A DNA stretch of 41,009 bases from Burkholderiales bacterium (GTDB lineage: Bacteria > Pseudomonadota > Gammaproteobacteria > Burkholderiales > Thiobacteraceae), in the NCBI GenBank assembly GCA_018781585.1, contig JADMJT010000043.1:1-41009 (forward strand), given 5' to 3'. Positions 1,382-18,479 of this stretch are shown here, one piece after another. A program made the position numbers and the translations under genes. The notes beneath the pieces were generated by a model that was not told where the DNA came from, ran no database searches, and worked only from the letters and a program-made list of their open reading frames with translations. Each line of letters starts with the position of its first letter. The stretch's first letter is position 1.

Positions 1382-3079
1382 TTATTTCCCGCCTGCCAGC
1401 AGGAAATAGAGCAATATCAGATTGAGTAGGAATGATGCCAGCGCCAGCGTTTGCCACACGGCAAGCGGGTTGCGCGCCAATAGCGGTGTTGGCGGCAGCA
1501 CGGTCAGCGGTTTCATCTCGCCATGTTCGAGCGCCAGCAACATTTCTTCGGTGGTCTCGAAGCGGTTTTGCGGATCGCGGGCGACAGCTTTCAGCAAAAT
1601 CGTTTCCAGCCATTGCGGAATATCCGGACGGTAGCGCGTAGGCGGCACCGGGTCGCCGAAGCGGGGATGCTGAAACGGCTCGATCTCGCCGTAGGGATAT
1701 TTGCGCGTCAGCAAGTGGTACAGCGTGACGCCAGCGGCATACAAGTCGCTTTGCATGGTAGCGACGGCGCCAGCGAACATCTCCGGCGCGATGAAACTCG
1801 GAGTGCCCGCATTGCCGCGCGCCCCCTCTTCGGTCCAGGGGTTCAATGCCACACCCAGATCCAAAATGCGCAGCTTGGCATCGGCGCCGCTGTGCAAGTT
1901 GGCGGGCTTGATATCGCGATGGATCACATGCAAGCGATGCAAGGCAGACAAGCCCTTCACCAAGCGGATGCCAATCTGTGCGACATCGGCCACGGAAAAG
2001 TGCTGACCTTGATCCAGCCGCTGTTGTAGCGTCGCGCCTTCGTGATAGCTCATGACGTAATACAAGGCGCTGCGCGCATCCGCGGCCAGCGGTACCACTT
2101 GTGGAAAATAATGCGCCAGCACGCGCTTGGCGAGCCACTCTTCCATCAGCAAACCGGCGCAGCTCGCCGCATCGTCGGCCAATGCGGGTTGCAGTGTTTT
2201 TAACACTAACACCTGCTGTGTCTCCACTTGCCGCACTTTGTATAGGCGCGATGCGCGCGATTCATGCAAGCACTCCAATACTTCAAAATCGTCAATGCGA
2301 TCTCCGGCTTTCATGCGCGGCGGCAGGGGGAGTGTTTTACCCTCGGCGAGAAAATCATTGAGCGACTCTTCACCCAATTGCGCAACCCGTGTCACCAGCA
2401 CGGTCGCGTTGTCTTGCCCACCCTGCTTGATGGCGTTTTCTACCAAGGCATCGGCGGCGCGCTGTGGATTGCGATGCAGCAGCAAGAGTTCGTGCATGAC
2501 TTTCTCACCCAGCGGCTCCCACACGCCATCAGTGAGTAGGCAAAACACATCGCCCGCCATCAGCTCGCCATCGGCGTAATCCACCGATAAGAAATCGTCC
2601 AAACCCACCGCACGCTTCAGCACATGCTGCATGCCGGGGCGATCCCAAACATGATCGGTGGTGAGTTGGATCATTTGTTCGCCGCGCAAACGATAGATGC
2701 GCGAGTCGCCCACATGCGCGGTGTAGTAGCGGCTGCCGCGCAAAATCAGCGCACTCAAGGTCGTGGCCATACCGGAAAATTCGCGACGCGAATTAGCTTG
2801 CGCGAGCAGCCAGCGGTTGATCGCGGTGAGAATCTTATCCAGCGCGTAGGGCACTTCCCAGGTATCCGGCGTGGCGTAGTAATCGGAGAGCACGCCGCGC
2901 ACGGTGAACTCCGCCGCCTCGCGCCCCGCCTCTCCGCCGCCCACGCCATCGGCAACGGCGAGCAGCGCGCCTTTCATCTGTGCGAGTGAGGGCTCCGGTG
3001 TCACGCAGCCGGCGTAATCTTCGTTTTGCTCGCGGCTACCGATGTGGGTGGCTTGGCCGACGGTGATTTGGAGATGCAT
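1382..3079 (-). CDS. Fused PP2C-type protein phosphatase and Ser/Thr protein kinase with C-terminal membrane anchor
   Basis: A 565-residue bifunctional signalling protein. Residues 1-235 are a PP2C phosphatase with all metal-site motifs intact: QNED (18-21), ADGVGG (43-48), GDSR (124-127), TDG (183-185) and DNAT (223-226). Residues 263-530 are a Hanks-type kinase with VLKTL (293-297) for the ATP lysine, the catalytic loop HRDIKPAN (387-394), DLG in place of DFG (407-409), and an APE-like segment near 431. The usual glycine-rich loop is not evident in the stretch around 272-282. Residues 537-560 form one membrane helix, so both domains should face the cytoplasm. The gene follows narK on the same strand after 165 bases. 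Similar fused proteins are encoded beside nitrate-assimilation genes in Pseudomonas, which suggests a role in controlling nitrate uptake or reduction; the target is unknown. Confidence 0.92.
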   Translation of the reverse strand: MHLQITVGQATHIGSREQNEDYAGCVTPEPSLAQMKGALLAVADGVGGGEAGREAAEFTVRGVLSDYYATPDTWEVPYALDKILTAINRWLLAQANSRREFSGMATTLSALILRGSRYYTAHVGDSRIYRLRGEQMIQLTTDHVWDRPGMQHVLKRAVGLDDFLSVDYADGELMAGDVFCLLTDGVWEPLGEKVMHELLLLHRNPQRAADALVENAIKQGGQDNATVLVTRVAQLGEESLNDFLAEGKTLPLPPRMKAGDRIDDFEVLECLHESRASRLYKVRQVETQQVLVLKTLQPALADDAASCAGLLMEEWLAKRVLAHYFPQVVPLAADARSALYYVMSYHEGATLQQRLDQGQHFSVADVAQIGIRLVKGLSALHRLHVIHRDIKPANLHSGADAKLRILDLGVALNPWTEEGARGNAGTPSFIAPEMFAGAVATMQSDLYAAGVTLYHLLTRKYPYGEIEPFQHPRFGDPVPPTRYRPDIPQWLETILLKAVARDPQNRFETTEEMLLALEHGEMKPLTVLPPTPLLARNPLAVWQTLALASFLLNLILLYFLLAGGK

Positions 3080-3244: not shown

Positions 3245-4456
3245 TTAGATTTTCGCCGCCGTGAGATGCGCCGCACCCCAGGTGGTGCGCCAGCGCGTCT
3301 TCACGCTTGACAGCCCAACCAGTGCCAGCACCGCGAGCGCGGCAAAGATGATGAAGCCAATTTGATAACTGCCGGTGAGTTGCTTGGCGTAACCCAAGCT
3401 CGACGCGAGATAAAACCCGCCCACGCCGCCCGCCATGCCGACCAGCCCCGTCATCACGCCGATTTCCTTGCGGAAGCGCTGCGGCACGAGTTGGAATACC
3501 GCGCCGTTGCCCATGCCGAGCGCCAACATGGCGGCGACAAACACCGTCAACGCCATCCACGCCTGCGAGAAGCCGAAACTCACGATGAACAGAAAAGCCG
3601 CTGCCAGGGTATACATCACGAGCAAGCTGCGAATACCACCGATGCGGTCCGCCACCGTGCCGCCGATCGGCCGCACCAGCGAGCCGGCAAATACACAGGC
3701 GGCGGTGAAGTAGCCGGCGATCACCGGGCTTAAGCCGTACTGTGTATTGAAATAAATGGTGAGCGAAGACGCCAGCCCAACGAAACCACCGAAGGTCACG
3801 CTGTAGAAAAACATGAACCACCAGGCATCTTTATCCTTCAGCACGGCCAGATACTGACTTAGCGATTTGGCGGGGGGGCATTCCGGCGCATCCTTGGCAA
3901 AAATCAGATACACCACGAACGCGAGGCCCAAGGGAATCATGGCGAGCCCGAATACATTTTGCCAGCCATACCAAGTAGCCAGCGTGGGCGCGAACAGCGC
4001 CGCCAATACCGTGCCCGAATTACCCGCGCCGGCAATACCGAGTGCGGTGCCCTGGTGCTCAGGCGGATACCAGCGTGAAGCCAAGGGCAGCGCCACCGCG
4101 AATGCCGCACCGGCGAAGCCCAAGAAGCCACCGAGTAGCAATACTTGCTGATAACTGTGCACACCGAAGTACCAAGCAAAACCCAGTGCGGCGAGCACGA
4201 TCACTTGCCCAATCGACCCCGCGAGTTTCGGCTTGAGGTGATCCACCAGTACCCCCATCACGATACGCAGCAGGGCACCGGACAATACGGGCGTCGCCAC
4301 CATCAGGCCTTTTTGCGCCGGCGTGAGTTGCAAATCCTGCGCGATTTGCACACCGAGTGGACCGAGCATGACCCACACCATGAAAGCTAGATCGAAATAA
4401 AAAAATGCCGCAAACAGCGTCGGCGGGTGGCCCGCCTTCCAAAACCCCTTATTCAT
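3245..4456 (-). CDS. narK: NarK/NasA-type nitrate (nitrite) transporter, major facilitator superfamily
   Basis: A 403-residue transporter with about 12 membrane segments, the expected size for single NarK domains. Glycine-rich stretches characteristic of the nitrate/nitrite porter family are present: GIAGAGNSGTVLAALF in the middle of the N-terminal half and GMGNGAVFQLVPQRF plus GMAGGVGGFYLASSLGYA in the C-terminal half. I start at the ATG at 4456 (MNKGFWKAG), which has AGGAG eight bases upstream. An in-frame ATG at 4471 lies upstream of that ribosome-binding site and is unlikely. A sigma-54-type promoter ends about 43 bases upstream, and the phosphatase/kinase gene follows. With NasA and NirBD in the same region, import of nitrate for assimilation is the likely role. 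The direction and substrate cannot be proved from sequence. Confidence 0.93.
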   Translation of the reverse strand: MNKGFWKAGHPPTLFAAFFYFDLAFMVWVMLGPLGVQIAQDLQLTPAQKGLMVATPVLSGALLRIVMGVLVDHLKPKLAGSIGQVIVLAALGFAWYFGVHSYQQVLLLGGFLGFAGAAFAVALPLASRWYPPEHQGTALGIAGAGNSGTVLAALFAPTLATWYGWQNVFGLAMIPLGLAFVVYLIFAKDAPECPPAKSLSQYLAVLKDKDAWWFMFFYSVTFGGFVGLASSLTIYFNTQYGLSPVIAGYFTAACVFAGSLVRPIGGTVADRIGGIRSLLVMYTLAAAFLFIVSFGFSQAWMALTVFVAAMLALGMGNGAVFQLVPQRFRKEIGVMTGLVGMAGGVGGFYLASSLGYAKQLTGSYQIGFIIFAALAVLALVGLSSVKTRWRTTWGAAHLTAAKI

Positions 4457-4498
4457 GCAACAACTCCTCATAGTAAAAACAATCGTCAGGGGTGTTAT

Positions 4499-6439: not shown

Positions 6440-9400
6440 TTATTTTGCGATGCGTAAATTTGAATTTATAGTCTGAACCAGTGCATTTATATCGATGGGC
6501 TTTGTCAGGTAATCAACAAAGCCTGCTTTCTGAGCCTTTTGAATGGCGCTAGGCATTGCGTTGGCGCTAAGTGCGATGACTGGCGTGTTTTCCATCTCAG
6601 GGATAAGGTGCAGTTGTTCGAGCATGGCAAAACCGTCCATGCCCGGCAGATTGATATCCAGAAGAATGAGGTCGGGTCGATGTGCCTGCACCAAGCCCAA
6701 CCCAAGTTCCGCACTGTGGGTGGTGAGAAGCTTGATACCCTGTTGTCGCGCCAGCACTTGTTCCACCAGCGCAATGTTGTCTGGGTTGTCTTCAACATAA
6801 AGGATGGTCCAATTACGGCCTACATTCGGCAGAGCGCGCGGGGCGATGTCCGTGGGCATCAGATCAGTCTCAGCATGAACAGGGGCAGGCGCTTCATCCA
6901 GCTCGATCCAGAAAGTACTCCCCTGCCCCAGGGCACTGCTGACGCCAATCGTCCCGTCCATCATTTCAATGATTTGCTTGGTAATAGCAAGTCCAACACC
7001 CGTGCCTTCAACCGTCGTATCTTCTGCGCCTAAACGATTGAATGGTTGGAAAAGCAAACCCTGCTTCTCGATGGCTATCCCATGGCCACTATCGGCGATA
7101 GAAACTCGAATTTTGTGGCTATTCTCCTCTGAGCAAGACAGCGTCACCGTGCCCTGGCTTGGCGTGTATTTGATTGCATTTGAGAGAAGATTCAGAAGTG
7201 CCTGCTTGAGACGTGTACGGTCTGCACGGACAAAGCGTCCACGATAGGCAGAAGTGCGATCCATAAAGGACATGCTTTTCTTGTGCATTAGGGGTGCAAT
7301 CAAGTCTGCACTTTCCCGTATTGCCCCGCCAATATCCACAACTTCGATTAACAGTTCGATCTTGCCCGCCTCTATTTTGGCCAGATCAAGCACCTCGTTG
7401 ATCAGCCCAAGCAAATGCCTGCCACCCCTGAGTATATAGTCGACGTTTTCCTGTTGAGATGCGGTGAGGGGTTGCTCTGAATCTGATTCCAGTAACTGCC
7501 CAAATCCCAAAATGGCATTCATCGGTGTCCGTAATTCGTGACTCATATTGGCCAGGAATTCGGATTTGGCTCGGTTGGCCTGGTCTGCCTCAATTTTGGC
7601 CTGAATCAACGCTTCTTCTGTTTGTTTGTGCGCGGTAAAATTCGTGCGGATGGAAATATATTGGTGAGGTAAGCCATTTTCATCCAGGAATGGGACGATG
7701 GTCGAATCTACCCAGTAATCTTCCCCATTTTTATTACGGTTCTTGATAACGCCATGCCACACCTTGCCTTGAGAAATATCCGCCCACATCTGAAACCAGA
7801 ATTCATTCTCGTGGTAACCGGAATTGACGATACGGTGATTGGCGCCCAGCAGTTCCGATCGTGAATATCCGCTAATTTCAAGAAATTTATCGTTGGCGTA
7901 AGTAATCGCGCCAGTGACATCGGTAATGCTAACGATGGAATGTTGGTCCAGCGAGAATTTCTGCTGCGACAACTCATTCATCGCTTTGGCGAGTTGCTCC
8001 TCATATTGCCTACGTTCGGTAATATCATGAAATACCCCGATGGTGCCGATGCACTGGTTCGCAGAATCGAACACAGGTGATCGGGTCGTCTCGTAAATAC
8101 GCCTGCCGACATTTTTCAACGTCAGGACTTTCTCCTTCACTAGCGTTTCATTATGATCTCTTGCGTACTTATCATCCGACTTACAACCCACCGCTTCGTC
8201 GACAGGAGATATTTCTTCCTCTGTTTTCCCACGCAATTCGGCGGAGGATAAACCCGTCGCGTTTTCGAGGGCGCGATTCACGAATATGTAGCGTGAATGA
8301 ACATCTTTTGACCACACCAGATCTGGCAAATTGTCGAGTAGCGTCGCCTGCTCCCGCTCCTTTATATGCAAATTCTTAGAAGTTTGCTGGAGTTGTTCAT
8401 TAAGCAAGGCAAGCTGCTGCGTTCTTAACGCTACGCGTTGCTCCAGGTCGGCATTGATCTCATTTGTCTCTTTGTTCGCCCGGTTTAGCGCTTGAAGCGT
8501 ATTTCTGAGCACTATCTCCATCTCGCTAAAATTCCGCACCAAGTCATGAATTTCCTGAACCGGAGATTCCAGCAACGCAACCCCAGCCCCCCTTTCGCCC
8601 AGATTGATACCGGTCGTTGCCTGAGATAATACGGTTAACGGTTTAGCCAAAATACGGCTGATGATCAGCCCAAACAAATAAGCCAGTGTGCACAACAAAA
8701 TAATCAAAGCGAATGCCTTGATGTTCGCTTCTTGCGTAGCAGCATAGTATGGTGCGGCTGGCACCTCCGCGATCAATCGCCAAGGTATTTCTTCGGTTAG
8801 CGTGCTTTCTTTCACATAAAAGGAATTACGCCAGATTAAAGTTGGGGGACCATCAGCGACTGAGTTCCATTGATAAATATTCGCGTCAACCCAGGTTCTG
8901 ACTCCATGTCTATGACCGGTATATAGCTGCCCAGTGGCCACGTCAGGAGCGGTTGTTGCGACGACTTTTCCCTTTAAATCCACAACTGTCGCGCGCGCTC
9001 CGCCCCGACGGGCTTGTCGACTCAGCGCATCGCTTACATAGTCAAGCTTGAGCGACGCCACGACGAAACCATTGAAAGCCCTACCGTCAACTCCCTTGCC
9101 GAGAATCGGTACGCTAATGCCAACAGCCGGCATATGTGTAAGCTTACCGATGAAAACTTCTGAAACAACTGGTTTTATACTTGCCTGAAGGTCCTTAAAC
9201 CACGGTCGATCTGAAAAATTTAATTTATTTTTGGTCGTCATTTTATCGTCGGTTACCGCATAGGCTGCCACTGCCCCAGTGGCATCACCCACATGCACAC
9301 TGTTCAATCCCGGGAACGTCGCCTGCACCACATCCAGTTCATGCCGCATACTGCCGAGGGGTTCGCCCCCTATCCTGGAGGCTCTTTCCGCGATTCCGTT

Positions 9401-10108
9401 TAAAGTGAAAATATACCGCTGATGCAAGGCTAACAATTGACTGGCAAACTCATCGGATAAAGTACTCAATCGTTGGTTCACGTCGGCACGCATTTGCCTA
9501 CCTTGTTCCCGGTTATTGACCACGAGAATTGCCATTGCGGGGAAAATTACTGACACCACCAGCAAACTGGTGAGTCCCTGCCTAAGCGGGAACGCTTTTC
9601 TGTTGGAAGAATCACCCGTCCACTTTTGGATGGGAAGATAGGTCAAAATCAGGCTGGCCACCAAGGCATTAAAGTACCCATTTACCCCTTGCTTAAGCGC
9701 AATAAGTAATGCCGCTGACGTGTCAAAAGGCAACAAGCTGAAATGCAGCACCCATGCCAGGGGCATGCCTAGCGTGACCCAGAAAATCCCATCCAGCAAT
9801 GGGATGTTTGCGTCCTTCCTCTTAAATGCCAAACCGACTACTAACGTTTCAAGTGCAAAGGTAAGAAAGGCATAAGGGTGGTGCCACAAAATTACTGTAT
9901 AGCTTGATGCAATAATTGACGCTAGTACGGCCCAAGATAGGCCATATAGGCTGAGTATGATAAGAACGAAGATGCTACCGAATAAAAAATCAACGCCTGT
10001 GAATAGCGAGGCATGAAGATAATTGCCAACAAACGCGATGACAATCAGAGCGAAGAACGAAAAAAGCTGCCGCTGGGTAAAAAGCTCGCTGTTTTTATAA
10101 GCGCACAA
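6440..10108 (-). CDS. Membrane hybrid histidine kinase (MASE-like TM, Cache, HAMP, two PAS, HisKA, HATPase, receiver)
   Basis: A 1222-residue sensor kinase. In order it has six or seven membrane helices (about 13-160, MASE1-like), a further helix near 178-197, a large periplasmic double-Cache-like sensor (about 200-460), a helix at 464-485 and a HAMP region with coiled coil (about 485-585). Two PAS domains follow (about 586-700 and 715-830). Then come HisKA with phospho-acceptor His857 (MSHELRTPMN), an ATPase domain with Asn977, DSGHG (1006-1010) and GTGVGL (1035-1040), and a C-terminal receiver with Asp1151 (LLDINLPGMDG) and Lys1203. All catalytic residues are intact. No separate response regulator is adjacent. 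Codon use is more AT-rich than its neighbours, suggesting acquisition. The start is a TTG with no clear ribosome-binding site, so the N-terminus is uncertain. The ligand is unknown. Confidence 0.9.
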   Translation of the reverse strand: MCAYKNSELFTQRQLFSFFALIVIAFVGNYLHASLFTGVDFLFGSIFVLIILSLYGLSWAVLASIIASSYTVILWHHPYAFLTFALETLVVGLAFKRKDANIPLLDGIFWVTLGMPLAWVLHFSLLPFDTSAALLIALKQGVNGYFNALVASLILTYLPIQKWTGDSSNRKAFPLRQGLTSLLVVSVIFPAMAILVVNNREQGRQMRADVNQRLSTLSDEFASQLLALHQRYIFTLNGIAERASRIGGEPLGSMRHELDVVQATFPGLNSVHVGDATGAVAAYAVTDDKMTTKNKLNFSDRPWFKDLQASIKPVVSEVFIGKLTHMPAVGISVPILGKGVDGRAFNGFVVASLKLDYVSDALSRQARRGGARATVVDLKGKVVATTAPDVATGQLYTGHRHGVRTWVDANIYQWNSVADGPPTLIWRNSFYVKESTLTEEIPWRLIAEVPAAPYYAATQEANIKAFALIILLCTLAYLFGLIISRILAKPLTVLSQATTGINLGERGAGVALLESPVQEIHDLVRNFSEMEIVLRNTLQALNRANKETNEINADLEQRVALRTQQLALLNEQLQQTSKNLHIKEREQATLLDNLPDLVWSKDVHSRYIFVNRALENATGLSSAELRGKTEEEISPVDEAVGCKSDDKYARDHNETLVKEKVLTLKNVGRRIYETTRSPVFDSANQCIGTIGVFHDITERRQYEEQLAKAMNELSQQKFSLDQHSIVSITDVTGAITYANDKFLEISGYSRSELLGANHRIVNSGYHENEFWFQMWADISQGKVWHGVIKNRNKNGEDYWVDSTIVPFLDENGLPHQYISIRTNFTAHKQTEEALIQAKIEADQANRAKSEFLANMSHELRTPMNAILGFGQLLESDSEQPLTASQQENVDYILRGGRHLLGLINEVLDLAKIEAGKIELLIEVVDIGGAIRESADLIAPLMHKKSMSFMDRTSAYRGRFVRADRTRLKQALLNLLSNAIKYTPSQGTVTLSCSEENSHKIRVSIADSGHGIAIEKQGLLFQPFNRLGAEDTTVEGTGVGLAITKQIIEMMDGTIGVSSALGQGSTFWIELDEAPAPVHAETDLMPTDIAPRALPNVGRNWTILYVEDNPDNIALVEQVLARQQGIKLLTTHSAELGLGLVQAHRPDLILLDINLPGMDGFAMLEQLHLIPEMENTPVIALSANAMPSAIQKAQKAGFVDYLTKPIDINALVQTINSNLRIAK

Positions 10109-10451: not shown

Positions 10452-12311
10452 TCAGTGACAATCCATCGCCACACCTACTTGGGGCATCTTGGCGAGCCCT
10501 GTTTCGCGCGCATGTGCTTGGAAGGCCGGATTGCGCCAGAAGAAAGCGCCGGGCATGGTGGTTGGGATCACCAAGGCGTAGAACAACATGCGGCCCACGG
10601 CGGCGGCGCTGGTTGCTACGACGCTGATCAGTAGCCAAATGGCCCAGCCTGTCGCGCCTTGCGGGATAAAGAGCGCGAACGCCAGTACCGCAAGCAGCGC
10701 CACACCAAAAGCCGCGTTGCGTGAGCGATAGGTGTGTGCGAAATTGGTCGTCTGCACTTGATGTGCGGCGGCACCCTCGCCGCCCATGCGCCGCAGATCG
10801 CGCGCATGGAAAGCAAGTCCGATTATTTCCAAGGCCAAACCTGCAACGACTGCCCAAGCCAATGTACCGAGTAGTGCTGTGCTCTCATCGACCAAGGGTG
10901 CAAAGACCAAGCCCACCGCCAGTGGGCCCAACACGAGCATGGCGCCGTAGAAGCTGGTGAGTACCTGCCAGTGATTCCAAAAGGGTCGCGCTGGGATGCG
11001 ATAAATGCTATGCATGAAATACAGCGCCGCTAACCCCGACAAGGCTGCGCCATAGCCTGCGAGCGTAGTCAAATTGTTTATCAAGCCCAGTGGTAGCCAC
11101 TGACTTAATTGCGGAAAAGCGGTGAGCACGGTGTAAGCGCCGAGTAGGTTGTAGAACACGGCGATGCCCGCCACTTCGCGCGATACCGGCGAGTAACGCA
11201 GGTTGTTGAAGGCGCGATAGAAGCGATGTGGCCGCCCAAGATGCAAAGTGGAGAGAACGAGCGCCAGGGTTTGCAGGCCGATCATGCCGAACAGAAAGGC
11301 GGGGCGCGCGATCGGATGCGCATCGGCGGCGAGCATGTCGAGCCCAAACAGTGGGCCGAAGAACAGCACGAGAAAAGCGCCCACCACGGCTTGGGATATC
11401 AGCGTGAATACCACCAGCGGATTTTCGCGGGTGGAGAGTTTCTTGATGCCCCAGCCACGCGACTCGTCTCTCATTAAGGGTTGTGGACGATACTCACCCC
11501 CACCCCAGCCCTCCCCCGCCTCGCGCGGAAGGGAGTCGGAAGCGGTGCGCACGTATTGAATCGGATGACTGTCCGTGCGCGTCATTTCGCGCGGCAATGT
11601 TTTAGTCTGCTGGAAGCGAATATTCGGATGCGTGATGTTTGGATCGGGAAAACCGGGAATCGTAATCTCAGTTTGAATGCGATTTTCCGGCTTGGTCTCG
11701 ATCACGCCGAAATCGAGCGCGTTGGCTAAACAAGCTGAGACGCAGGCGGGCTTCAAGCCCACTTCCAAACGATCGACGCACATATTGCATTTCGATACGT
11801 GACCCGCGACCGGATCAAGCTGCGGCGCGTTGTAAGGGCAAACCCACGTGCAGTAGCCGCAACCAAAGCAAATATCCGGGTCTTGCAGCACCGCGCCGTA
11901 TTCGGCGAACTTGGTGTAGGCGAGTGTGGGGCAACCCTTGAGGCACACCGGATCATCGCAGTGGTTGCACGCCATGGAAATATTCATACGGGTGTAGGAC
12001 GGATACGCCCCGCCTTCGAGATAGCCTACGGAACGGAAAGCTAGATGCGCTGGCGTTTCATTTTTCTCGGCACACGCCGCTTCGCACGCATGGCAGGCGA
12101 TGCAATTGTCGGCGTTGAAATAAAAGCCGTGCTGCTTGTAGCGGTCGGGGTTCGCCGACACCGCCGCATCGCCGTTGATGTTAAGGCTTTTGCCGCGTAG
12201 GACGTGGCCTTGCGGCACGGTCTCGATTGATTGGCCCCAGCGGTTTTGCTCGGGATGATCGACCTTCGGCACGAAGGCGTAGGCAGGTTCTTTGGGACGT
12301 GGTTCAAACAT
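10452..12311 (-). CDS. DmsB-DmsC fusion: four-cluster ferredoxin subunit joined to a membrane quinol-oxidising anchor
   Basis: A 619-residue protein. Residues about 65-205 are a DmsB-type subunit with sixteen cysteines in four groups for [4Fe-4S] clusters (CIACHACEAAC; CNHCDDPVCLKGC; CFGCGYCTWVC; CNMC plus CVSAC). Residues about 295-600 are a DmsC-type anchor with about eight membrane helices. The domains are normally separate polypeptides. I start at the ATG at 12311 (MFEPRPKEP), 13 bases after the nasA stop. It should move electrons from quinol through the clusters to a molybdenum partner, here NasA encoded just upstream. The linker near residues 258-273 (LPREAGEGWGGGEY) is translated from a dispersed CCCTCTCCC-type repeat. 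The fusion itself is clear; the partnership with NasA is inferred from adjacency. Confidence 0.88.
   Translation of the reverse strand: MFEPRPKEPAYAFVPKVDHPEQNRWGQSIETVPQGHVLRGKSLNINGDAAVSANPDRYKQHGFYFNADNCIACHACEAACAEKNETPAHLAFRSVGYLEGGAYPSYTRMNISMACNHCDDPVCLKGCPTLAYTKFAEYGAVLQDPDICFGCGYCTWVCPYNAPQLDPVAGHVSKCNMCVDRLEVGLKPACVSACLANALDFGVIETKPENRIQTEITIPGFPDPNITHPNIRFQQTKTLPREMTRTDSHPIQYVRTASDSLPREAGEGWGGGEYRPQPLMRDESRGWGIKKLSTRENPLVVFTLISQAVVGAFLVLFFGPLFGLDMLAADAHPIARPAFLFGMIGLQTLALVLSTLHLGRPHRFYRAFNNLRYSPVSREVAGIAVFYNLLGAYTVLTAFPQLSQWLPLGLINNLTTLAGYGAALSGLAALYFMHSIYRIPARPFWNHWQVLTSFYGAMLVLGPLAVGLVFAPLVDESTALLGTLAWAVVAGLALEIIGLAFHARDLRRMGGEGAAAHQVQTTNFAHTYRSRNAAFGVALLAVLAFALFIPQGATGWAIWLLISVVATSAAAVGRMLFYALVIPTTMPGAFFWRNPAFQAHARETGLAKMPQVGVAMDCH
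11493..11540. repeat. Dispersed CCCTCTCCC-type repeat read in frame inside dmsBC
   Basis: On the plus strand this starts CTCACCCCCACCCCAGCCCT and continues through CCCCGC and GCGCGG to a run of GGGAG. It has the same organisation as the intergenic copies at 14540-14578 and 34545-34584. Here it encodes the linker LPREAGEGWGGGEY without breaking the frame. Confidence 0.7.
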
Positions 12312-12324
12312 AGTCAACTCTCTT

Positions 12325-14514
12325 TCAATAAGCCCGTGCAGCCGCATTCGCGGCTGCCGCCGCTACCTGATCCGCCGCTGGCTCGATACGTACGGAGCAC
12401 TGCTTGTAAGCTGGCTGACGCGAATGCGGATCGAGCAGGCCCAAGGTCAGGCGATTCACGCAGTCATGAAAATGGAAAGGGATGAACACCATATTGCGCG
12501 ACACGCGCTGCGTGAGTTGCACCATCACGACCGCTTCACCGCGCTTTGAAGTCAGTCGCGCGTAGCCGCCGTGTGAGACACCCACCTCGGCTGCCGCATC
12601 AGGATTCATTTCCATATAGGGCGTCGGGCTGAATTTGTTGGCATTGCCGACTTTTCCAGTCCTCGTGCGCGTATGGAAGTGCTCCACCACGCGGCCAGAG
12701 TTGAGCCAGAACGGATATTCGTCGTCCGGGCGTTCGTTGTTATCGACGAAGGCCAAGGGAATCAGTTTGGCTTTGCCATCCGGGTGCTGAAACTTTCCGT
12801 CCGTGTACAAGCGTTGCGCGCCGGTCTCATCACCCTCGCGGCAGGGCCACTGCATGCCGCGCTGCGCTTCGATCTTGGCGTAGCTCATGCCGGAGATATC
12901 CAAGATGCGATCTTCGCCCTTGGACAGCACTTTCATTTCCTCGAACACGGCTTCGGCGGTTTCCGGGAAGCTTGGGCCTTTGCCATCTGCCAGCCGCTTG
13001 GCCAGCGCGTTGAAAATCCACAAATCGGGTTTGGATTCGCCATTGGGCGGCATCACATTGCGGATCAGATTCACGCGGCGCTCGGTGTTGGTGAAGCAGC
13101 CTTCTTTCTCCGCCCAAACCGCTGCGGGTAAAAACACATGGCTGTACTGATTGGTTTCAACATCACTATACGCATCCTGCACCACCAGAAACTCCAGCTT
13201 CTCAAGCGTCTTGCGGATGCGGCTGGTGTTGGGCATCGAGGTCATGGGATTGGTGGCAACCAGCCACAGCCCCTTGATTTGCCCGGTTTCGATCGCGGGC
13301 AAAATATCGGTCATGAACATGCCGCGTTTTTTCGGGAAGAATTCCGGATCGACGTTCCAAAACTTGGAAATTTCCTCGCGATCCTTTTCCTTCTCCAACA
13401 CGCGATAGCCAGGTAGACCCGAACAAGATGACCACTCACGCGTGCCCATGGCATTGCACTGGCCGGTGATAGAGAGCGAGGAGCTGCCCGGCTTACCGAT
13501 GTTGCCGGTGATGAGGTTCAAGTTATTGATCGCCACTACGCCATCGGAGCCGTGCGTGCTCTGGTTGATACCCATGGTCCAGATGCTCATGGCCTTGGGT
13601 GCTTTCGCATACAGGCGCGCGACATTGCGGATGGTGTCTTCGTCAACACCGCATTGCTGCGACGCGGTGTAGGGATCCCAACGCTCGATTTCGGTTTTGA
13701 ACGCTTCGAAATCTGCACAGTGCGCGTCGATGTAGTCTTGCTTGTGCAAGCCTTCTTTCAGGATCACATGCGCCATGGCGTTGAGCAGCACCACGTCGGT
13801 ACCGGGCGTGATCGCCAGATGCATATCGGCCATTTGCGCGAACATGGTGACGCGCGGATCAACCACGATCACCGGGAATTTGCGCTTCTCTAACGCCTCT
13901 TTAAGCCGCCAGTAAATGACTGGATGCTGCTCAGGTAAATTAGAACCGAAGGCGATTAAACAATCGGTATGGTCGAAATCTTCGTAGCAGCCGGGGGGGC
14001 CATCCGAACCGAAAGAACGCTTATAACCCGACGCTGCCGAGGCCATGCATAGCGTGGTGTTGCCGTCGTAATTATTCGTGCCCATGACCCCGCGCGCGAG
14101 CTTGCCCAGGGTGTAGAACTCCTCGGTCATGATCTGGCCGGTGGAAACGATGGAGAAGGCATCGCGGCCGTAGGTTTCTTGAATACGCTTGATTTCAGCG
14201 GTGGTCTTGTCGAGCGCAGCGTCCCAGCTCACTTCACGGAAAGTCTCGTGGCGATAATCGCGCAGCAGCGGCTTATCGCCGCGACCCGCTGTCTTGCGAA
14301 ACAATTCGTGCTCTAAAATACCTTTGATGCACAACTTGCCGCGATTTACATCGGCATCGGCCACGCCGCGTGAAGCGACCGCCGTGCCGGTCTGATCCAG
14401 GCCGACTTCGATGGAGCAGCCGGTGGAACAGTAACCACACGTCGTGTAACGCCACTCGACGACGCCCTTGTCGACGAGCTTGATGGGATTTTTTTTGTTG
14501 CGACCAAACAGCAT
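12325..14514 (-). CDS. nasA: Assimilatory-type nitrate reductase catalytic subunit (molybdopterin oxidoreductase)
   Basis: A 729-residue enzyme of the Mo-bis-MGD family that would reduce nitrate to nitrite. The N-terminal [4Fe-4S] site is Cys26, Cys29, Cys33 and Cys62 (TTCGYCSTGC and GKLCIKG). The presumed molybdenum ligand is Cys156 in GNTTLCMASAASGY, as in NapA/NasA enzymes. The C-terminal cofactor-binding domain includes LNSGRVVEHFHTRTRTGK. There is no twin-arginine signal, so it is cytoplasmic. It lacks the extra C-terminal [2Fe-2S] region of longer NasA proteins. It follows nirD and precedes the DmsB-DmsC fusion with a 13-base gap, which points to membrane quinol as electron source. The ATG at 14514 has AAAGG upstream. 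Nitrate as substrate is inferred from family and from nirBD and narK nearby. Confidence 0.88.
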   Translation of the reverse strand: MLFGRNKKNPIKLVDKGVVEWRYTTCGYCSTGCSIEVGLDQTGTAVASRGVADADVNRGKLCIKGILEHELFRKTAGRGDKPLLRDYRHETFREVSWDAALDKTTAEIKRIQETYGRDAFSIVSTGQIMTEEFYTLGKLARGVMGTNNYDGNTTLCMASAASGYKRSFGSDGPPGCYEDFDHTDCLIAFGSNLPEQHPVIYWRLKEALEKRKFPVIVVDPRVTMFAQMADMHLAITPGTDVVLLNAMAHVILKEGLHKQDYIDAHCADFEAFKTEIERWDPYTASQQCGVDEDTIRNVARLYAKAPKAMSIWTMGINQSTHGSDGVVAINNLNLITGNIGKPGSSSLSITGQCNAMGTREWSSCSGLPGYRVLEKEKDREEISKFWNVDPEFFPKKRGMFMTDILPAIETGQIKGLWLVATNPMTSMPNTSRIRKTLEKLEFLVVQDAYSDVETNQYSHVFLPAAVWAEKEGCFTNTERRVNLIRNVMPPNGESKPDLWIFNALAKRLADGKGPSFPETAEAVFEEMKVLSKGEDRILDISGMSYAKIEAQRGMQWPCREGDETGAQRLYTDGKFQHPDGKAKLIPLAFVDNNERPDDEYPFWLNSGRVVEHFHTRTRTGKVGNANKFSPTPYMEMNPDAAAEVGVSHGGYARLTSKRGEAVVMVQLTQRVSRNMVFIPFHFHDCVNRLTLGLLDPHSRQPAYKQCSVRIEPAADQVAAAAANAAARAY

Positions 14515-14539: not shown

Positions 14540-14578
14540 CCCTCTCCCCCAGCCCCTCTCCCGCACGCGGGAGAGGGG
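14540..14578. repeat. CCCTCTCCC/GGGAGAGGG dispersed repeat between nirD and nasA
   Basis: CCCCTCTCCCG and its inverted copy CGGGAGAGGGG form a strong hairpin at 14554-14578, with a preceding CCCTCTCCCCCAG arm. A further partial GGGAGAGGG follows at 14592-14600. It lies inside the operon and might affect nirD/nasA message stability. Relatives are at 11493-11540 and 34545-34584. Confidence 0.7.
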
Positions 14579-14605
14579 TACGCGTCAGCGCGGGAGAGGG
14601 AAATA

Positions 14606-14989
14606 TCAGTGGTCAGCACTGCCGTCACTTGGCGTCAGCGACAAAAACACCTTCTCGCCATCCAAACGAATTGGGAACGATGCCGCACAGCCTTCATCCG
14701 GCGCTACGGCAATGCCTGTTTCCAACGCAATGCTCCAGTTATGCAGCGGACACGCCACAGTGCGCCCGTAGATAATGCCCTGCGACAAGGGGCCGCCCTT
14801 GTGCGGACACTTGTCACGTAACGCAAAAACTTCATCTTGCAGATTGCGAAACACGGCGATATCACCCAGCGGTGTTTTCACTACGCGGGCGCCATCTTTC
14901 GGGATGTCGGATATCGCGCCCACTTCAATCCACTGTTCGAACTTAATCGGTTTAGTTGGCATCGCTACTTTCTTCGCTAAGTTATTCAT
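14606..14989 (-). CDS. nirD: Nitrite reductase small subunit with intact Rieske motif
   Basis: A 127-residue Rieske-fold protein, the small subunit of NADH-dependent siroheme nitrite reductase. Both halves of a canonical [2Fe-2S] Rieske site are present: CPHKGG (Cys61, His63) and CPLHNW (Cys80, His83). This differs from enterobacterial NirD, where the ligands are lost, so this subunit probably binds a cluster. Its ATG overlaps the nirB stop codon (ATGA), a strong sign of translational coupling. nasA follows after a repeat-containing gap. Confidence 0.94.
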   Translation of the reverse strand: MNNLAKKVAMPTKPIKFEQWIEVGAISDIPKDGARVVKTPLGDIAVFRNLQDEVFALRDKCPHKGGPLSQGIIYGRTVACPLHNWSIALETGIAVAPDEGCAASFPIRLDGEKVFLSLTPSDGSADH

Positions 14990-17436
14990 GCGGTTTGCCC
15001 CTCAATCACTTTCATTGGCGTGAACTCATGCTTGTCTACGCCCTTGGCACGCTCGGCCCAAGGGTCGAAGCGGTAGATTTCCTGCGATTCGAGGAAGCGC
15101 TTATACGCGGCTGCGCGGCCTTCGGCGTCGTCCACCACGCGGCCTTTGATATAGGCCAGGCCCACGCGCTCCACCCAAGGTGCGGTGCGCTCCAGGTAGC
15201 GCGCTTCTTCGCGGTAGATTTGCATGAAGGCGGCGGCGTATTCCAATACTTCTTCACGCGTGGTGACACGACACAGCAAATCGGTGGCGCGCACTTTCAC
15301 GCCGCCGTTACCGCCCACGTGCAGCTCCCAACCGGATTCGATCGCGACCACGCCAAAATCCTTGATCGTCGCCTCGGCGCAGTTGCGCGGACAGCCGGAG
15401 ACCGCCATCTTGAATTTGTGCGGTGTCCACGAACCCCAGGTCATTTCTTCCAGGTCGATACCCATCTGCGTCGAGTCTTGCACGCCGAAGCGGCACCACT
15501 CGGAGCCAACGCAGGTTTTCACCGTTCGCAGCGCCTTGCCGTAGGCGTGACCGGAAACCAGGCCCCGATCCGCGAGAAAGCCCCATACCTCAGGCAAGGT
15601 TTCCTTCTTCACACCCAGCAAGTCGATGCGCTGGCCACCGGTGATTTTCATCGTGGGCACTTCGAATTTCTCGGCCACATCGGCAATCGCGCGCAACTGA
15701 TCCACCGTCACCGAACCGCCCCACAAACGGGGGATCACGGAGTAACTGCCGTCCTTTTGGATATTGGCGTGCGCGCGTTCGTTGATGTAGCGCGATTGAT
15801 AATCGTCTTTTGCCGTCTCGGGCCAGGTGGAAATCAGGTAATAGTTCAAGGCGGGGCGGCAGGATGGGCAGCCATCGGCACGCTTCCATTCCAGCTTCGC
15901 CATTACATCGGGTATCGATGTGAGCTGTTGATCGCGAATCGCGGCGCGCACTTGATCGTGGGTGTAGTCGGTGCATTTGCACATCGGCTTGGCTTCGGGC
16001 GCCTCGTAATCGCCGCCCAAGGTGTGCGCCAAAATTTGCTCGACTAGACCAGTGCAGGAGCCGCAGGATGCCGCCGCTTTGGTGTGCGACTTTACGTCAT
16101 CCAGCGTGAACAATCCTTTGGTGACGATGGCCTTAACAATGGTGCCCTTGCATACGCCGTTGCAGTCGCACACTTGGTCGGCGTCTTGCATCGCCGCAGC
16201 GCGATTTTGCCCGCCGTGGCCGGAATCGCCCAGATGCGTTTCGCCAAACAGCAGGCGATTGCGCAGCGCAGAGACGTCGGTACCTTCGCGCATCAATTTG
16301 AAATACCAGTTGCCGTCTGTGCTCTCGCCATAGAGCACCGCGCCCACCAGTTTGTTGTCCTTGAGTACAAGCTTCTTGTATAGCCCGCCCTTGGGATCCG
16401 ATAGCAGCAGGTCTTCCGTGCCTTCGCCGCCCAGATAATCGCCTGCGGAAAATAACTCGATGCCGGTGACTTTCAATTTGGTCGAGGTGACCGAGCCGGT
16501 GTAACGGCCAATGCCGAATTCGGCCAGATGATTCGCGCACACCTTGGCCATCTCAAACAGCGGCGCAACCAAACCATAGGCGATGCCGCGATGCGACACG
16601 CACTCGCCGATGGCATAGATACGCGGATCGAAAGTTTGCATGGTGTCGTTGACCACGATGCCGCGATTACAGTGAATGCCTGCGGATTCGGCCAATTGGG
16701 TGTTGGGGCGAATGCCGACAGCCATCACCACCAAATCGGCCGGCACTTCCTGTCCATCTTTAAAGCGCACGGCAGCCACGCGGCCATCGCGGCCGATGAG
16801 TTGCTCGGTCTGCTTGCCCATCAGGAAATTGAGCCCTTTATCTTCCAGGCTCTTTTGCAACATTTTGGATGCGACCGGATCCAGCTGACGCTCCATGAGC
16901 GCGTCGGGTAGATGCACTACGGTCACGTCCATACCGCGCAGTTTCAAACCATTCGCGGCTTCCAAACCCAGCAGGCCACCGCCGATGACCACCGCGTGTT
17001 GGTACTTACCGGATGCCTCGATCATGGCGTCCACATCGTGAATGTCGCGGAAGCTGATCACCCCCGCCAGATCATTGCCGGGTACAGGCAAGATAAACGG
17101 ATTGGAACCCGTGGCGAGAATTAAGCGGTCATAGCCGGCACTGGTGCCATCGTCCGCGTGCACCGAACGATTCTTACGGTCGATACGCGTGATTTTTTTG
17201 TTCAGATGCAGCGTGATGCCGTTTTTTTCATACCAGTCGACATCGTTGAGCATGATGTCTTTAATCGTCTGCTCACCCGCCAGCACGGGCGAGAGCAAAA
17301 TCCGGTTGTAGTTAGCATGGGGCTCAGAACCGAACACCGTAATGTCATACAGATCGGGGGCCAGCTTGAGCAGCTCCTCCAGCGTGCGCACGCCCGCCAT
17401 ACCATTGCCGACCATCACTAATTTCATGCGTTTCAT
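14986..17436 (-). CDS. nirB: NAD(P)H nitrite reductase large subunit
   Basis: An 816-residue cytoplasmic enzyme reducing nitrite to ammonium. It has an FAD/NAD-binding reductase module (about 1-300; VGNGMAG near the start, VVIGGGLLGLEAA near 150) and a BFD-like [2Fe-2S] region (CDCNGVC, CGSCTG; about 420-465). The ferredoxin-like half-domain and siroheme-[4Fe-4S] domain follow, with CVGSEWC (642-648) and SGCPRNC (Cys682, Cys686). All cofactor ligands are intact and length is normal. I start at the ATG at 17436 (MKRMKLVMVG), which has GGAG upstream, not at the TTG four codons earlier. It lies between ybiB and nirD in one minus-strand unit driven by a sigma-54 element. Confidence 0.95.
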   Translation of the reverse strand: MKRMKLVMVGNGMAGVRTLEELLKLAPDLYDITVFGSEPHANYNRILLSPVLAGEQTIKDIMLNDVDWYEKNGITLHLNKKITRIDRKNRSVHADDGTSAGYDRLILATGSNPFILPVPGNDLAGVISFRDIHDVDAMIEASGKYQHAVVIGGGLLGLEAANGLKLRGMDVTVVHLPDALMERQLDPVASKMLQKSLEDKGLNFLMGKQTEQLIGRDGRVAAVRFKDGQEVPADLVVMAVGIRPNTQLAESAGIHCNRGIVVNDTMQTFDPRIYAIGECVSHRGIAYGLVAPLFEMAKVCANHLAEFGIGRYTGSVTSTKLKVTGIELFSAGDYLGGEGTEDLLLSDPKGGLYKKLVLKDNKLVGAVLYGESTDGNWYFKLMREGTDVSALRNRLLFGETHLGDSGHGGQNRAAAMQDADQVCDCNGVCKGTIVKAIVTKGLFTLDDVKSHTKAAASCGSCTGLVEQILAHTLGGDYEAPEAKPMCKCTDYTHDQVRAAIRDQQLTSIPDVMAKLEWKRADGCPSCRPALNYYLISTWPETAKDDYQSRYINERAHANIQKDGSYSVIPRLWGGSVTVDQLRAIADVAEKFEVPTMKITGGQRIDLLGVKKETLPEVWGFLADRGLVSGHAYGKALRTVKTCVGSEWCRFGVQDSTQMGIDLEEMTWGSWTPHKFKMAVSGCPRNCAEATIKDFGVVAIESGWELHVGGNGGVKVRATDLLCRVTTREEVLEYAAAFMQIYREEARYLERTAPWVERVGLAYIKGRVVDDAEGRAAAYKRFLESQEIYRFDPWAERAKGVDKHEFTPMKVIEGQTA

Positions 17437-17495
17437 CGTTTGCTCCAAGTGCGTTTCCGTTACATCAAAAAATTAAATCAATGGACAGGACTTAC

Positions 17496-18479
17496 CTAAG
17501 CCGCCGCCAAGCTCCCCGTCTCTACCGCCGCAATGGCTTTCGCCTGATTAAAATCCTGCGAATAACCTGACGCATACAAACAGCAGGCGAGTTGATTTAC
17601 GAGCGGCAAGGGCGCGGATATTTCACGCGCCAACACACGTTTGATCCAGCGCGCGGTCGACACTGCATCGCAGGTGTCGGGAATCGGCGGCACACTTTTG
17701 ATCGGGCCGGATTCAGCCTCAAACAACACGCGTGATTCGCCGCCTTGGAAATAGCGCAACTCCGGGCGACGCTTGGGATTGGCGTAAGGCTCGCCTTCTG
17801 TGCCGCGCAGCAGCAAAGCGTCGAAGCCGGTCGCAATCAGAAAATCGGATATCAGTTGTAAGTAATCAGGATGACTGGCGCTGATCAGTCGCAGCCCCAT
17901 GCCATCGAAGGGATCGATCAGCTTGACCAAGGTATGCGCACTATTGCGCACGCCGAGCCGGCTGCGTGCATTGAGCAAAGACGCCAAACCCGGACTTAAC
18001 GCACTGGTGGGCACGAATGCGATACGATCATTGGCGAGGCGTGTCTCGGCTTGTGCAAGCGTGGCACAGGGGAAAATATCCAACTCGCGCATCACATGCA
18101 CCGTCGCGACGCGGCCATGGCCTTCCAACTCGCCATGCAACAGCACCGGTACGCCAAATTGCCTAAGCCATAAAGCGATCAGCGGGGTGAGGTTGGCCTG
18201 GCGACGTGCACCGTTATAGGTAGGAATCACCACCGGTCGCGGACCGCTGGAAGGCGAGGTCAATTTGTAAACACGCTTGTCCACCGCCTGATAAAAACCG
18301 AGCAACTCGTCGAGCGTCTCGCCCTTCATGCGCATGGCCATCAGTAAGCCACCCAACTCCATATCCGGTACGCCGCTATCGAGCATTGCGCTCATCAAAC
18401 GATTGGCATCGTCCTCACTCAACGCTCGGCTGCCGTTAGGGCCCCGGCCAATTTCTTTTAAATAGGCTGTGTAGCTCAC
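17496..18479 (-). CDS. ybiB: YbiB/TrpD2-family protein (anthranilate phosphoribosyltransferase-like fold)
   Basis: A 327-residue member of the glycosyltransferase family 3/TrpD2 group. Features include the N-terminal helical domain with ALSEDDANRLMSAML, LGGLLMAMRMKGET, and later blocks PVLLHG and GVRNSAHTLVKLIDPF. Escherichia coli YbiB has the TrpD fold but binds nucleic acid rather than making tryptophan, and no trp genes are nearby here. The GTG start has AGGAAA upstream. It is the first gene behind the sigma-54 element at 18556-18571, with nirB 59 bases downstream, so it appears co-expressed with nitrate assimilation. Family call is firm; why it sits in a nitrogen operon is unknown. Confidence 0.85.
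   Translation of the reverse strand: MSYTAYLKEIGRGPNGSRALSEDDANRLMSAMLDSGVPDMELGGLLMAMRMKGETLDELLGFYQAVDKRVYKLTSPSSGPRPVVIPTYNGARRQANLTPLIALWLRQFGVPVLLHGELEGHGRVATVHVMRELDIFPCATLAQAETRLANDRIAFVPTSALSPGLASLLNARSRLGVRNSAHTLVKLIDPFDGMGLRLISASHPDYLQLISDFLIATGFDALLLRGTEGEPYANPKRRPELRYFQGGESRVLFEAESGPIKSVPPIPDTCDAVSTARWIKRVLAREISAPLPLVNQLACCLYASGYSQDFNQAKAIAAVETGSLAAA

What the first reader, a model, noticed from the sequence alone, without database searches (positions are those of the whole stretch)
10452..14514. NasA-type cytoplasmic nitrate reductase paired with a DmsB-DmsC fusion
The catalytic subunit has no Tat signal and no C-terminal [2Fe-2S] domain, while the next gene encodes a four-cluster ferredoxin fused to a membrane quinol-oxidising anchor. 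This implies a quinol-fed assimilatory nitrate reductase with active site facing the cytoplasm, unlike soluble ferredoxin- or NADH-dependent NasA. It could drain excess quinol while feeding NirBD.
Basis: partly seen in the sequence, partly recalled or inferred. Interest (0 to 1): 0.62.

Follow-up and report, generated by a model that had tools for sequence, protein, structure and literature searches.

The report
Membrane-anchored nitrate reductase for nitrogen assimilation
A bacterial gene pair appears to encode a nitrate-reducing enzyme that takes its electrons from the membrane quinone pool, not from NADH or ferredoxin, while working on the inner side of the membrane to feed nitrogen into the cell, an arrangement that recurs mainly in carbon-fixing bacteria.

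Summary
A 729-aa Mo-bisPGD subunit (12325-14514, -) without a Tat signal or C-terminal [2Fe-2S] domain is followed after 13 nt by a 619-aa fusion (ATG at 12311) of a 16-Cys ferredoxin domain and an eight-helix DmsC-type anchor, in a nirB-nirD operon. The pairing is real: in 185 sampled genomes of the class the fusion occurs in 28, all with this catalytic clade, and 74 of 80 loci from a second collection have the catalytic gene directly upstream. Active-site positions match NasA/NapA, not formate dehydrogenases, but the subunit is its own lineage. The anchor keeps the DmsC quinol-site residues (three of four in 81 of 81, one in 76). Its loop charges are inverted relative to DmsC/YnfH (81 of 81), as in Soe-type anchors, so active site and iron-sulfur domain should face the cytoplasm. 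Carriers are enriched in RuBisCO (26 of 28 versus 63 of 157). Best reading: a quinol-fed, cytoplasm-facing assimilatory nitrate reductase that spares NADH in autotrophs. A published survey says the NasA/NapA clade never carries these subunits. Nothing biochemical was tested; the 'excess quinol drain' role is untested.

The parts
12325..14514 (-). catalytic subunit, 729 aa, short nitrate-reductase clade (Mo-bisPGD, N-terminal [4Fe-4S]), no Tat signal, no C-terminal BFD [2Fe-2S] domain
14329..14439 (-). N-terminal [4Fe-4S] cysteines C26, C29, C33, C62
   Evidence: invariant columns of the 6-sequence alignment; that they bind the cluster is from the family domain
14047..14049 (-). Mo-ligand Cys156 (followed by Met157), as in NasA and NapA
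   Evidence: alignment with E. coli NapA and FdhF: C-M in 14 of 14 short-clade rows, C-H in 6 of 6 FDH rows
10452..12311 (-). DmsB-DmsC-type fusion, 619 aa, start ATG at 12311 (stop included)
11730..12104 (-). ferredoxin domain with 16 cysteines (four [4Fe-4S] clusters inferred), all 16 in 81 of 81 aligned sequences
10575..11423 (-). membrane anchor, eight predicted transmembrane helices, NrfD/PsrC-like fold
   Evidence: AlphaFold model, Foldseek hits to alternative complex III chain C and PsrC 2vpw_C, PF04976
11175..11243 (-). putative quinol site: His357 (= E. coli DmsC His65) to Glu379 (= DmsC Glu87)
   Evidence: alignment; H and E in 81 of 81; DmsC roles from PMC8076601 passages
11496..11543 (-). 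linker insert between the two domains that looks like a translated palindromic repeat; also in G004, absent in G006 and G002
14606..14989 (-). nirD, nitrite reductase small subunit
   Evidence: TIGR02378 92.3 bits, cut-off 74.65
14986..17448 (-). nirB, nitrite reductase large subunit
   Evidence: TIGR02374 965 bits, cut-off 578
17496..18479 (-). ybiB; also beside nir/nas genes in L051, L052, L053, L055 and L087
3245..4471 (-). NarK-family MFS transporter, probably part of the same pathway
   Evidence: TIGR00886 291.9 bits, under the cut-off of 311.7
1382..3079 (-). PP2C/Ser-Thr kinase fusion; the same architecture with an MFS gene sits beside nas clusters in L128 and L188

Best explanation
The two genes encode one membrane-bound complex, a quinol:nitrate oxidoreductase working for nitrogen assimilation. 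Proposed path: quinol is oxidised at a site in the first four helices of the anchor (His357, Glu379), close to the cytoplasmic face. Electrons pass through the four [4Fe-4S] clusters of the fused ferredoxin domain to the [4Fe-4S] cluster and Mo-bisPGD of the catalytic subunit. Nitrate is reduced to nitrite in the cytoplasm, and NirBD reduces it to ammonium with NADH. The anchor is inverted relative to E. coli DmsC, as proposed for SoeC, so neither subunit needs Tat export. Shown here: gene pairing, domain content, residue conservation, charge inversion, lineage, genomic associations. Inferred: complex formation, orientation itself, direction of electron flow, nitrate as substrate, quinol as donor. 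Physiological inference: in autotrophs whose electrons enter at the quinone level, drawing two of the eight electrons of nitrate-to-ammonium reduction from quinol avoids making that NADH by uphill electron flow.
For: Fusion in 28 of 185 class genomes, all 28 with the catalytic clade, 0 in the other 157; upstream catalytic gene in 74 of 80 loci. Distances in the catalytic subunit track those in the fusion (r 0.66) better than either tracks NirB (0.45, 0.49) in 41 loci. Active-site columns Cys140/Met141/Thr333/Gln110 (FdhF numbering) as in 27 of 27 classical NasA and 2 of 2 NapA rows in 14 of 14 short-clade rows, unlike 6 of 6 FDHs. Nitrate-reductase group apart from FDHs with 100/100. nirBD in the window and in many loci. 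A same-genus genome has a classical NasA (923-aa frame) at the same chromosomal locus. DmsC quinol-site residues kept: His357, Glu379, Ser374 in 81 and Ser354 in 76 of 81. K+R 16.2 on the N-terminal side versus 0.6 on the other, same sign in 81 of 81; Soe-type anchors agree (17 of 18), DmsC/YnfH oppose (0 of 4). The own genome (MAG, 98.7% complete) has no NarG match, no NapA above cut-off and no second match to the catalytic subunit at E <= 1e-100, so this is the only nitrate reductase these searches recognise. RuBisCO family in 26 of 28 versus 63 of 157.
Against: No biochemistry. Curated family cut-offs are not met: best model TIGR01591 Fdh-alpha 583 against 666, NasC 529 against 1100. A first tree with long outgroups placed the clade weakly (83) with FDH, AioA and NasC-like rows. 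The two NasC-like/Streptomyces rows have Thr, not Met, after the Mo-Cys, so Met is no universal nitrate-reductase mark. In one genome (G074) the fusion lies on another contig, and one locus (L121) has a nirB fragment, not nasA, before the fusion. The hydropathy-based count gave the expected sign in 78, not 81, of 81. The ferredoxin part of the AlphaFold model has low confidence, and no complex was modelled. The RuBisCO association is by genome presence and not corrected for phylogeny.
Confidence: 0.77

Rival explanations
1. A dissimilatory or redox-balancing nitrate reductase: the complex drains quinol to nitrate as an electron sink, and NirBD detoxifies nitrite or serves DNRA; nitrogen supply is secondary.
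For: A quinol-linked enzyme fits respiration or overflow; NirBD can serve both pathways (passages in PMC4914600); 15 of 80 loci also carry a classical NasA-like gene that could cover assimilation.
Against: Both half reactions on the cytoplasmic side would not by themselves build a proton gradient (inference). In 15 of the 28 carriers of the class sample no second match at E <= 1e-90 appeared beside the short enzyme (where at most six candidates per genome were scored; for the window's genome all nine were scored); two of these 15 (G093, G160) have NarG. NarG is not enriched (2 of 28 versus 27 of 157). The same locus in a sister species holds a classical NasA.
Confidence: 0.2
2. The catalytic subunit is fed by soluble ferredoxin or NADH like NarB/NasA, and the fusion serves another oxidoreductase or only tethers it.
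For: Short NarB-type enzymes without a C-terminal [2Fe-2S] domain work with ferredoxin (recalled). G074 keeps the two genes on separate contigs.
Against: All 28 genomes with the fusion have the catalytic clade, they are adjacent in 74 of 80 loci, and all 16 cysteines and most quinol-site residues are kept.
Confidence: 0.08
3. The catalytic subunit acts on formate or another substrate, and the complex is a quinone-reducing dehydrogenase.
For: Highest NCBIfam score is formate dehydrogenase alpha, below cut-off; top PDB hit is the FdhF subunit of HDCR 7qv7, ahead of NapA 2jio.
Against: FDH His141 and Arg333 are Met and Thr in 14 of 14 rows as in NasA and NapA; FDHs fall outside with 100/100; frequent nir linkage.
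Confidence: 0.04

Closest known systems
Assimilatory nitrate reductase NasA/NarB/NasC
   Same: No export signal, Mo-Cys followed by Met as in NasA (and NapA), N-terminal [4Fe-4S], next to nirBD
   Different: Separate lineage; partner is a four-cluster ferredoxin fused to a membrane anchor; no BFD domain; in the window no flavoprotein other than NirB lies in the cluster
DmsABC (E. coli DMSO reductase)
   Same: Ferredoxin subunit with 16 cysteines and DmsC anchor with the same quinol-site residues
   Different: B and C fused; no Tat export; catalytic subunit of another branch; anchor charge pattern inverted
SoeABC (cytoplasm-facing sulfite dehydrogenase)
   Same: Same predicted N-side orientation of the anchor (PMC8076601 passages)
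   Different: SoeA-like proteins are only distantly related (54-74 bits); B and C separate there; the anchor profile scores E. coli DmsC 55.6 bits but Soe-type anchors only 12-33
NarGHI respiratory nitrate reductase
   Same: Quinol-fed, cytoplasmic nitrate site, membrane-bound (recalled)
   Different: NarI is a haem b protein with a periplasmic-side quinol site (recalled); no NarG match in the window's genome

Membership tests
Assimilatory nitrate reductase (NasA/NarB/NasC) | No export signal, cytoplasmic catalytic subunit | tested here: met
   No twin-arginine pattern; MLFGR start in 64 of 68 uncut frames
Assimilatory nitrate reductase (NasA/NarB/NasC) | Mo-Cys ligand and NasA/NapA active-site residues | tested here: met
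   Cys, Met, Gln, Thr columns 14 of 14, as 27 of 27 classical NasA and 2 of 2 NapA; two NasC-like rows differ at Met and Thr
Assimilatory nitrate reductase (NasA/NarB/NasC) | Linked to assimilatory nitrite reductase genes | tested here: met
   nirB and nirD in the window; nirB-like gene in 56 of 80 loci; of the other 24 many are short contigs, but L133-L135 are not
Assimilatory nitrate reductase (NasA/NarB/NasC) | Falls inside the NasA (or NasC) clade | tested here: inconclusive
   Inside the nitrate-reductase group (100/100) but as a lineage beside NasA, NasC-like and NapA, order unresolved; cyanobacterial NarB and B. subtilis NasC not in the tree
Assimilatory nitrate reductase (NasA/NarB/NasC) | Passes curated NasC model cut-off | tested here: not met
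   NF047855 528.9 bits against 1100
Assimilatory nitrate reductase (NasA/NarB/NasC) | C-terminal [2Fe-2S] domain of proteobacterial NasA (not in all members) | tested here: not met
   No Fer2_BFD; no BFD-like motif in 81 short-clade frames from 79 loci, some cut at the 5' end
Assimilatory nitrate reductase (NasA/NarB/NasC) | Nitrate reduction | not testable with these tools
   needs enzyme assay
DmsABC | DmsC-type anchor (PF04976) | tested here: met
   74 bits against 22.3
DmsABC | DmsB equivalog | tested here: not met
   TIGR02951 158.1 against 214.1; 16 cysteines present
DmsABC | Tat-exported DmsA with periplasmic active site, N-out anchor | tested here: not met
   no Tat pattern, charge bias inverted 81 of 81; location itself not measured
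SoeABC | Anchor oriented with quinone site to the cytoplasmic side | tested here: met
   same charge pattern as 17 of 18 Soe-type anchors; prediction only
SoeABC | SoeA catalytic subunit | tested here: not met
   catalytic profile scores SoeA-like proteins 54-74 bits against 1587 for the window

The most novel reading that the evidence does not exclude
The complex is an energy-conserving assimilatory nitrate reductase: the NrfD-like anchor, inverted in the membrane, couples the large drop from quinol to nitrate to proton movement, so that nitrogen assimilation contributes to or is driven with the proton gradient.
Probability: 0.1. Interest if true: 0.85.

Novelty: new variant of a known kind. 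Interest (0 to 1): 0.66.

Why it matters
A 1,568-sequence study of the enzyme family states that no member of the clade with NasA/NasC, AioA and NapA is associated with the canonical four-cluster or membrane-anchor subunits (PMC7331816, passages read). The pair described here is such a case, in 28 of 185 genomes of the class (a sample drawn evenly across groups, so not a species frequency). If it works as proposed, nitrate assimilation in carbon-fixing bacteria, several of them titled as sulfur- or iron-oxidiser lineages, is partly paid from the quinone pool, which changes NADH and proton budgets used in metabolic models, and it gives a second example of an inverted NrfD-type anchor. It also supplies a clean test: one catalytic clade, one partner, and a sister species with the classical enzyme at the same locus.

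Tried and rejected
Plasmid collection: no close relative of either protein (658 and 1416 records with a match, all under 60% identity); used only for reference sequences. The first catalytic tree (56 rows with distant DmsA, SoeA and AioA) did not finish its careful search and put the clade weakly with FDH, AioA and NasC-like rows; a 31-row tree without the long DmsA, SoeA and AioA rows was then made, and both are reported. The hydropathy-based topology count gave the expected sign in 78 of 81 fusions; the three others were not examined singly, and the count on AlphaFold helix borders gave 81 of 81. The one Soe-type exception (L142_8, 267 aa) may come from my choice of a late Met as its start; it stays in the count. 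The intended DmsC of L204 was not recovered by the script, so four DmsC/YnfH were compared, not five. Of 12 non-fused anchor loci fetched from the class sample, 9 had a SoeA-like neighbour, one (L174) had none in the stretch and two (L159, L161) were not recovered by my profile; the name Soe is therefore not claimed for all 53 genomes with such anchors. Formate dehydrogenase was considered and rejected on active-site columns. NarG partnership was considered and found not enriched. A strict form of the palindromic repeat matched once in the own genome, on another contig, so a dispersed family is not shown. Literature: ten searches showed, in their listings and in the passages opened, no quinol-fed or DmsC-anchored assimilatory nitrate reductase; most listed papers were not opened and subscription journals are not held. 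Papers: PMC8076601, PMC7331816, PMC4914600, PMC4013037, PMC10734462, PMC4725956 and PMC6397845 were seen as passages only; all others as search listings only.

Full report
What is there. On the minus strand of the window lie ybiB (17496-18479), nirB (14986-17448), nirD (14606-14989), a 729-aa molybdopterin subunit (12325-14514) and a 631-aa frame (10452-12347) whose start, judged by five aligned orthologues, is the ATG at 12311, 13 nt after the preceding stop. The catalytic subunit has the three usual Mo-bisPGD domains and no BFD [2Fe-2S] domain; the second protein has 4Fe-4S domains and a DmsC domain. Further down the same strand are a NarK-family transporter (3245-4471; 291.9 bits, under the cut-off of 311.7) and a PP2C/Ser-Thr kinase (1382-3079), separated from the pair by a sensor kinase (6440-10108) and a plus-strand transglutaminase-like gene.

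Is the pair real? Among 60 relatives, 7 genomes hold close catalytic orthologues (67-100% identity; frames of 728-740 aa, one cut by a contig end). The same 7, plus G001 where the contig starts inside the fusion, hold the fusion. The next-best matches (43% and less) mostly have frames of about 880-1010 aa; the three of these genomes examined for it (L051, L053, L058) carry the BFD motif. In a sample of 185 genomes of the class, the fusion (E <= 1e-100) is in 28 and the catalytic clade (67% identity or more) in the same 28, plus a contig-end fragment in G126; none of the other 157 has the fusion. In G074 the two lie on different contigs. In a sample of 299 genomes of the phylum the fusion (E <= 1e-80) is in 3, the window's own included; the other two have a catalytic relative directly upstream (56 and 70% identity over the part fetched). 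A scan of a collection of 84,980 species genomes kept its best 80 loci of at least 572 relatives of the fusion; two of the 80 (L059, L071) match contigs already seen as G004 and G002. In 74 of the 80 the catalytic gene lies directly upstream on the same strand, with gaps of -1 to 240 nt. Five of the other six begin at or near the fusion, and one (L121) has a nirB fragment before it. A nirB-like gene lies in 56 of the 80, nirD in 48; many of the rest are short contigs. In 41 loci with all three full-length, protein distances of catalytic subunit and fusion correlate at 0.66, against 0.45 and 0.49 with NirB.

What the catalytic subunit is. Aligned with E. coli FdhF and NapA, it has Cys then Met at the Mo ligand, Thr where FDH has Arg333, and Gln at FdhF 110, in 14 of 14 short-clade rows. 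These are the residues of 27 of 27 classical NasA rows and 2 of 2 NapA rows; 6 of 6 FDH rows differ, and the two NasC-like rows have Thr in place of Met (the importance of Arg333 in FDH is recalled). A 31-row tree rooted on FDHs places all nitrate-reductase rows apart from FDHs with 100/100 and gives four lineages whose order is unresolved: NasC-like (2 rows), NapA (2), classical NasA (12 rows, 100/99) and this clade (9 rows, 100/100, stem 0.96). An earlier 56-row tree with very long outgroups put the clade weakly (83) nearer FDH, AioA and NasC-like rows. Curated models score it below cut-off. I therefore call it a lineage beside NasA, not NasA proper. Cyanobacterial NarB was not in the trees.

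Direct swap. In G003, of the same genus, the same chromosomal place (protease, ybiB, nirB and nirD neighbours at 76, 84, 72 and 58% identity) holds a classical NasA (923-aa frame) with a BFD motif in place of the short enzyme and its fusion. In L053 and L087 both types stand in one cluster. Of the 80 scanned loci, 15 carry a second, classical NasA-like gene; 8 of these are complete at the C-terminus and show the BFD motif, and 7 are cut by contig ends. The window's genome has no second match to the catalytic subunit at E <= 1e-100, no NarG match and no NapA above cut-off.

The fusion. All 16 cysteines are in 81 of 81 sequences, as are His357, Glu379 and Ser374; Ser354 is in 76. In the alignment with E. 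coli DmsC these are His65, Glu87, Ser82 and Ser62, the four residues that a review lists first for DmsC, as I read its table the quinone-site column; it reports that His65 replacement blocked quinol oxidation (PMC8076601, passages). AlphaFold gives eight confident helices in the anchor; the ferredoxin part is poorly predicted (mean pLDDT 72.7, pTM 0.79). Foldseek's best hits are alternative complex III chain C and PsrC, the only two with E under 0.001.

Orientation. On AlphaFold helix borders, lysine plus arginine count 16.2 on the side of the N-terminus and 0.6 on the other, with the same sign in 81 of 81. A hydropathy count gave 78 of 81 for the fusion, 17 of 18 for Soe-type anchors and 0 of 4 for DmsC/YnfH of DMSO/selenate reductase clusters. 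By the positive-inside rule the fusion is N-in and C-in, inverted relative to DmsC, which fits the missing Tat signals: no twin-arginine pattern in any of 81 fusion N-termini. The review proposes the same inversion for SoeC. By sequence the anchor is nearer E. coli DmsC (55.6 bits) than Soe-type anchors (12-33 bits).

Setting. Carriers have a RuBisCO-family gene in 26 of 28 genomes, against 63 of 157 others (Fisher p 1.3e-7), and a non-fused DmsC-family anchor in 17 of 28 against 36 of 157 (p 1.5e-4); 9 of the 12 such anchors fetched from this sample have a SoeA-like neighbour. NarG is in 2 of 28 against 27 of 157 (p 0.26). These tests ignore phylogeny, and the family lists were read off the output by hand. 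The window's genome has three RuBisCO-family genes, DsrA (499 bits, above cut-off) and a Soe-type cluster, so it is probably a sulfur-oxidising autotroph. Transport genes of a nitrate-type kind occur in L099 (NMT1-like binding protein, permease, ATPase), and MFS plus PP2C/kinase pairs in L128 and L188; other loci were not annotated this way.

Mechanism. Quinol oxidised near the cytoplasmic face, electrons through five clusters to molybdenum, nitrate to nitrite in the cytoplasm, nitrite to ammonium by NirBD with NADH. As drawn this is not electrogenic. The gain would be that two of eight electrons do not have to be lifted to NADH. That last step is inference, and so is quinol as donor.

Known or new. 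A family-wide study says that the clade with NasA/NasC, AioA and NapA is not associated with the canonical four-cluster or membrane-anchor subunits (PMC7331816, passages). A Gallionellaceae pangenome paper reports nasA with nirBD in iron oxidisers, with no mention of the fusion in the passages read (PMC10734462). Ten searches showed no description of the pair, within the limits given in Tried and rejected. I rate it a new variant of a known kind.

Noticed in passing
window 11496-11543 and 14540-14600: A palindromic repeat of the CTCTCCCGC...GCGGGAGAGGG type lies between nirD and nasA, and a degenerate copy is read in frame in the linker of the fusion (SLPREAGEGWGGG). A similar insert is in G004 but not in G006; a strict pattern matched once elsewhere in the genome.
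   Followed up: partly
L051 8765-18041: A same-genus genome has a classical NasA with a different gene order at the same locus: it looks like an in-place exchange of nitrate reductase types.
   Followed up: partly
L188 12751-16189: Between fusion and a second, classical nasA-like gene lie a short gene without Pfam match and a DsrC-like gene.
   Followed up: no
L079, L089, L091, L094, L099, L120, L124, L127: These loci have a more distant NirB (37-39% identity); in L099 one BFD domain was found in it and an ABC transporter of nitrate type lies alongside.
   Followed up: partly
L133, L134, L135: Catalytic subunit and fusion without a nirB match within the fetched stretch; a reverse transcriptase gene lies near the pair in L133.
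   Followed up: no
window 6440-10108: A 1222-aa hybrid sensor kinase with PAS domains sits downstream of the pair on the same strand; link to nitrate unknown.
   Followed up: no
L112 6768-8948: The catalytic gene is split into two frames (158 and 568 aa) in this MAG, either a stop or an assembly error.
   Followed up: no
L099: The public MAG record is titled Bordetella parapertussis although its pair resembles that of environmental betaproteobacterial MAGs in the same listing; possibly mislabelled.
   Followed up: no
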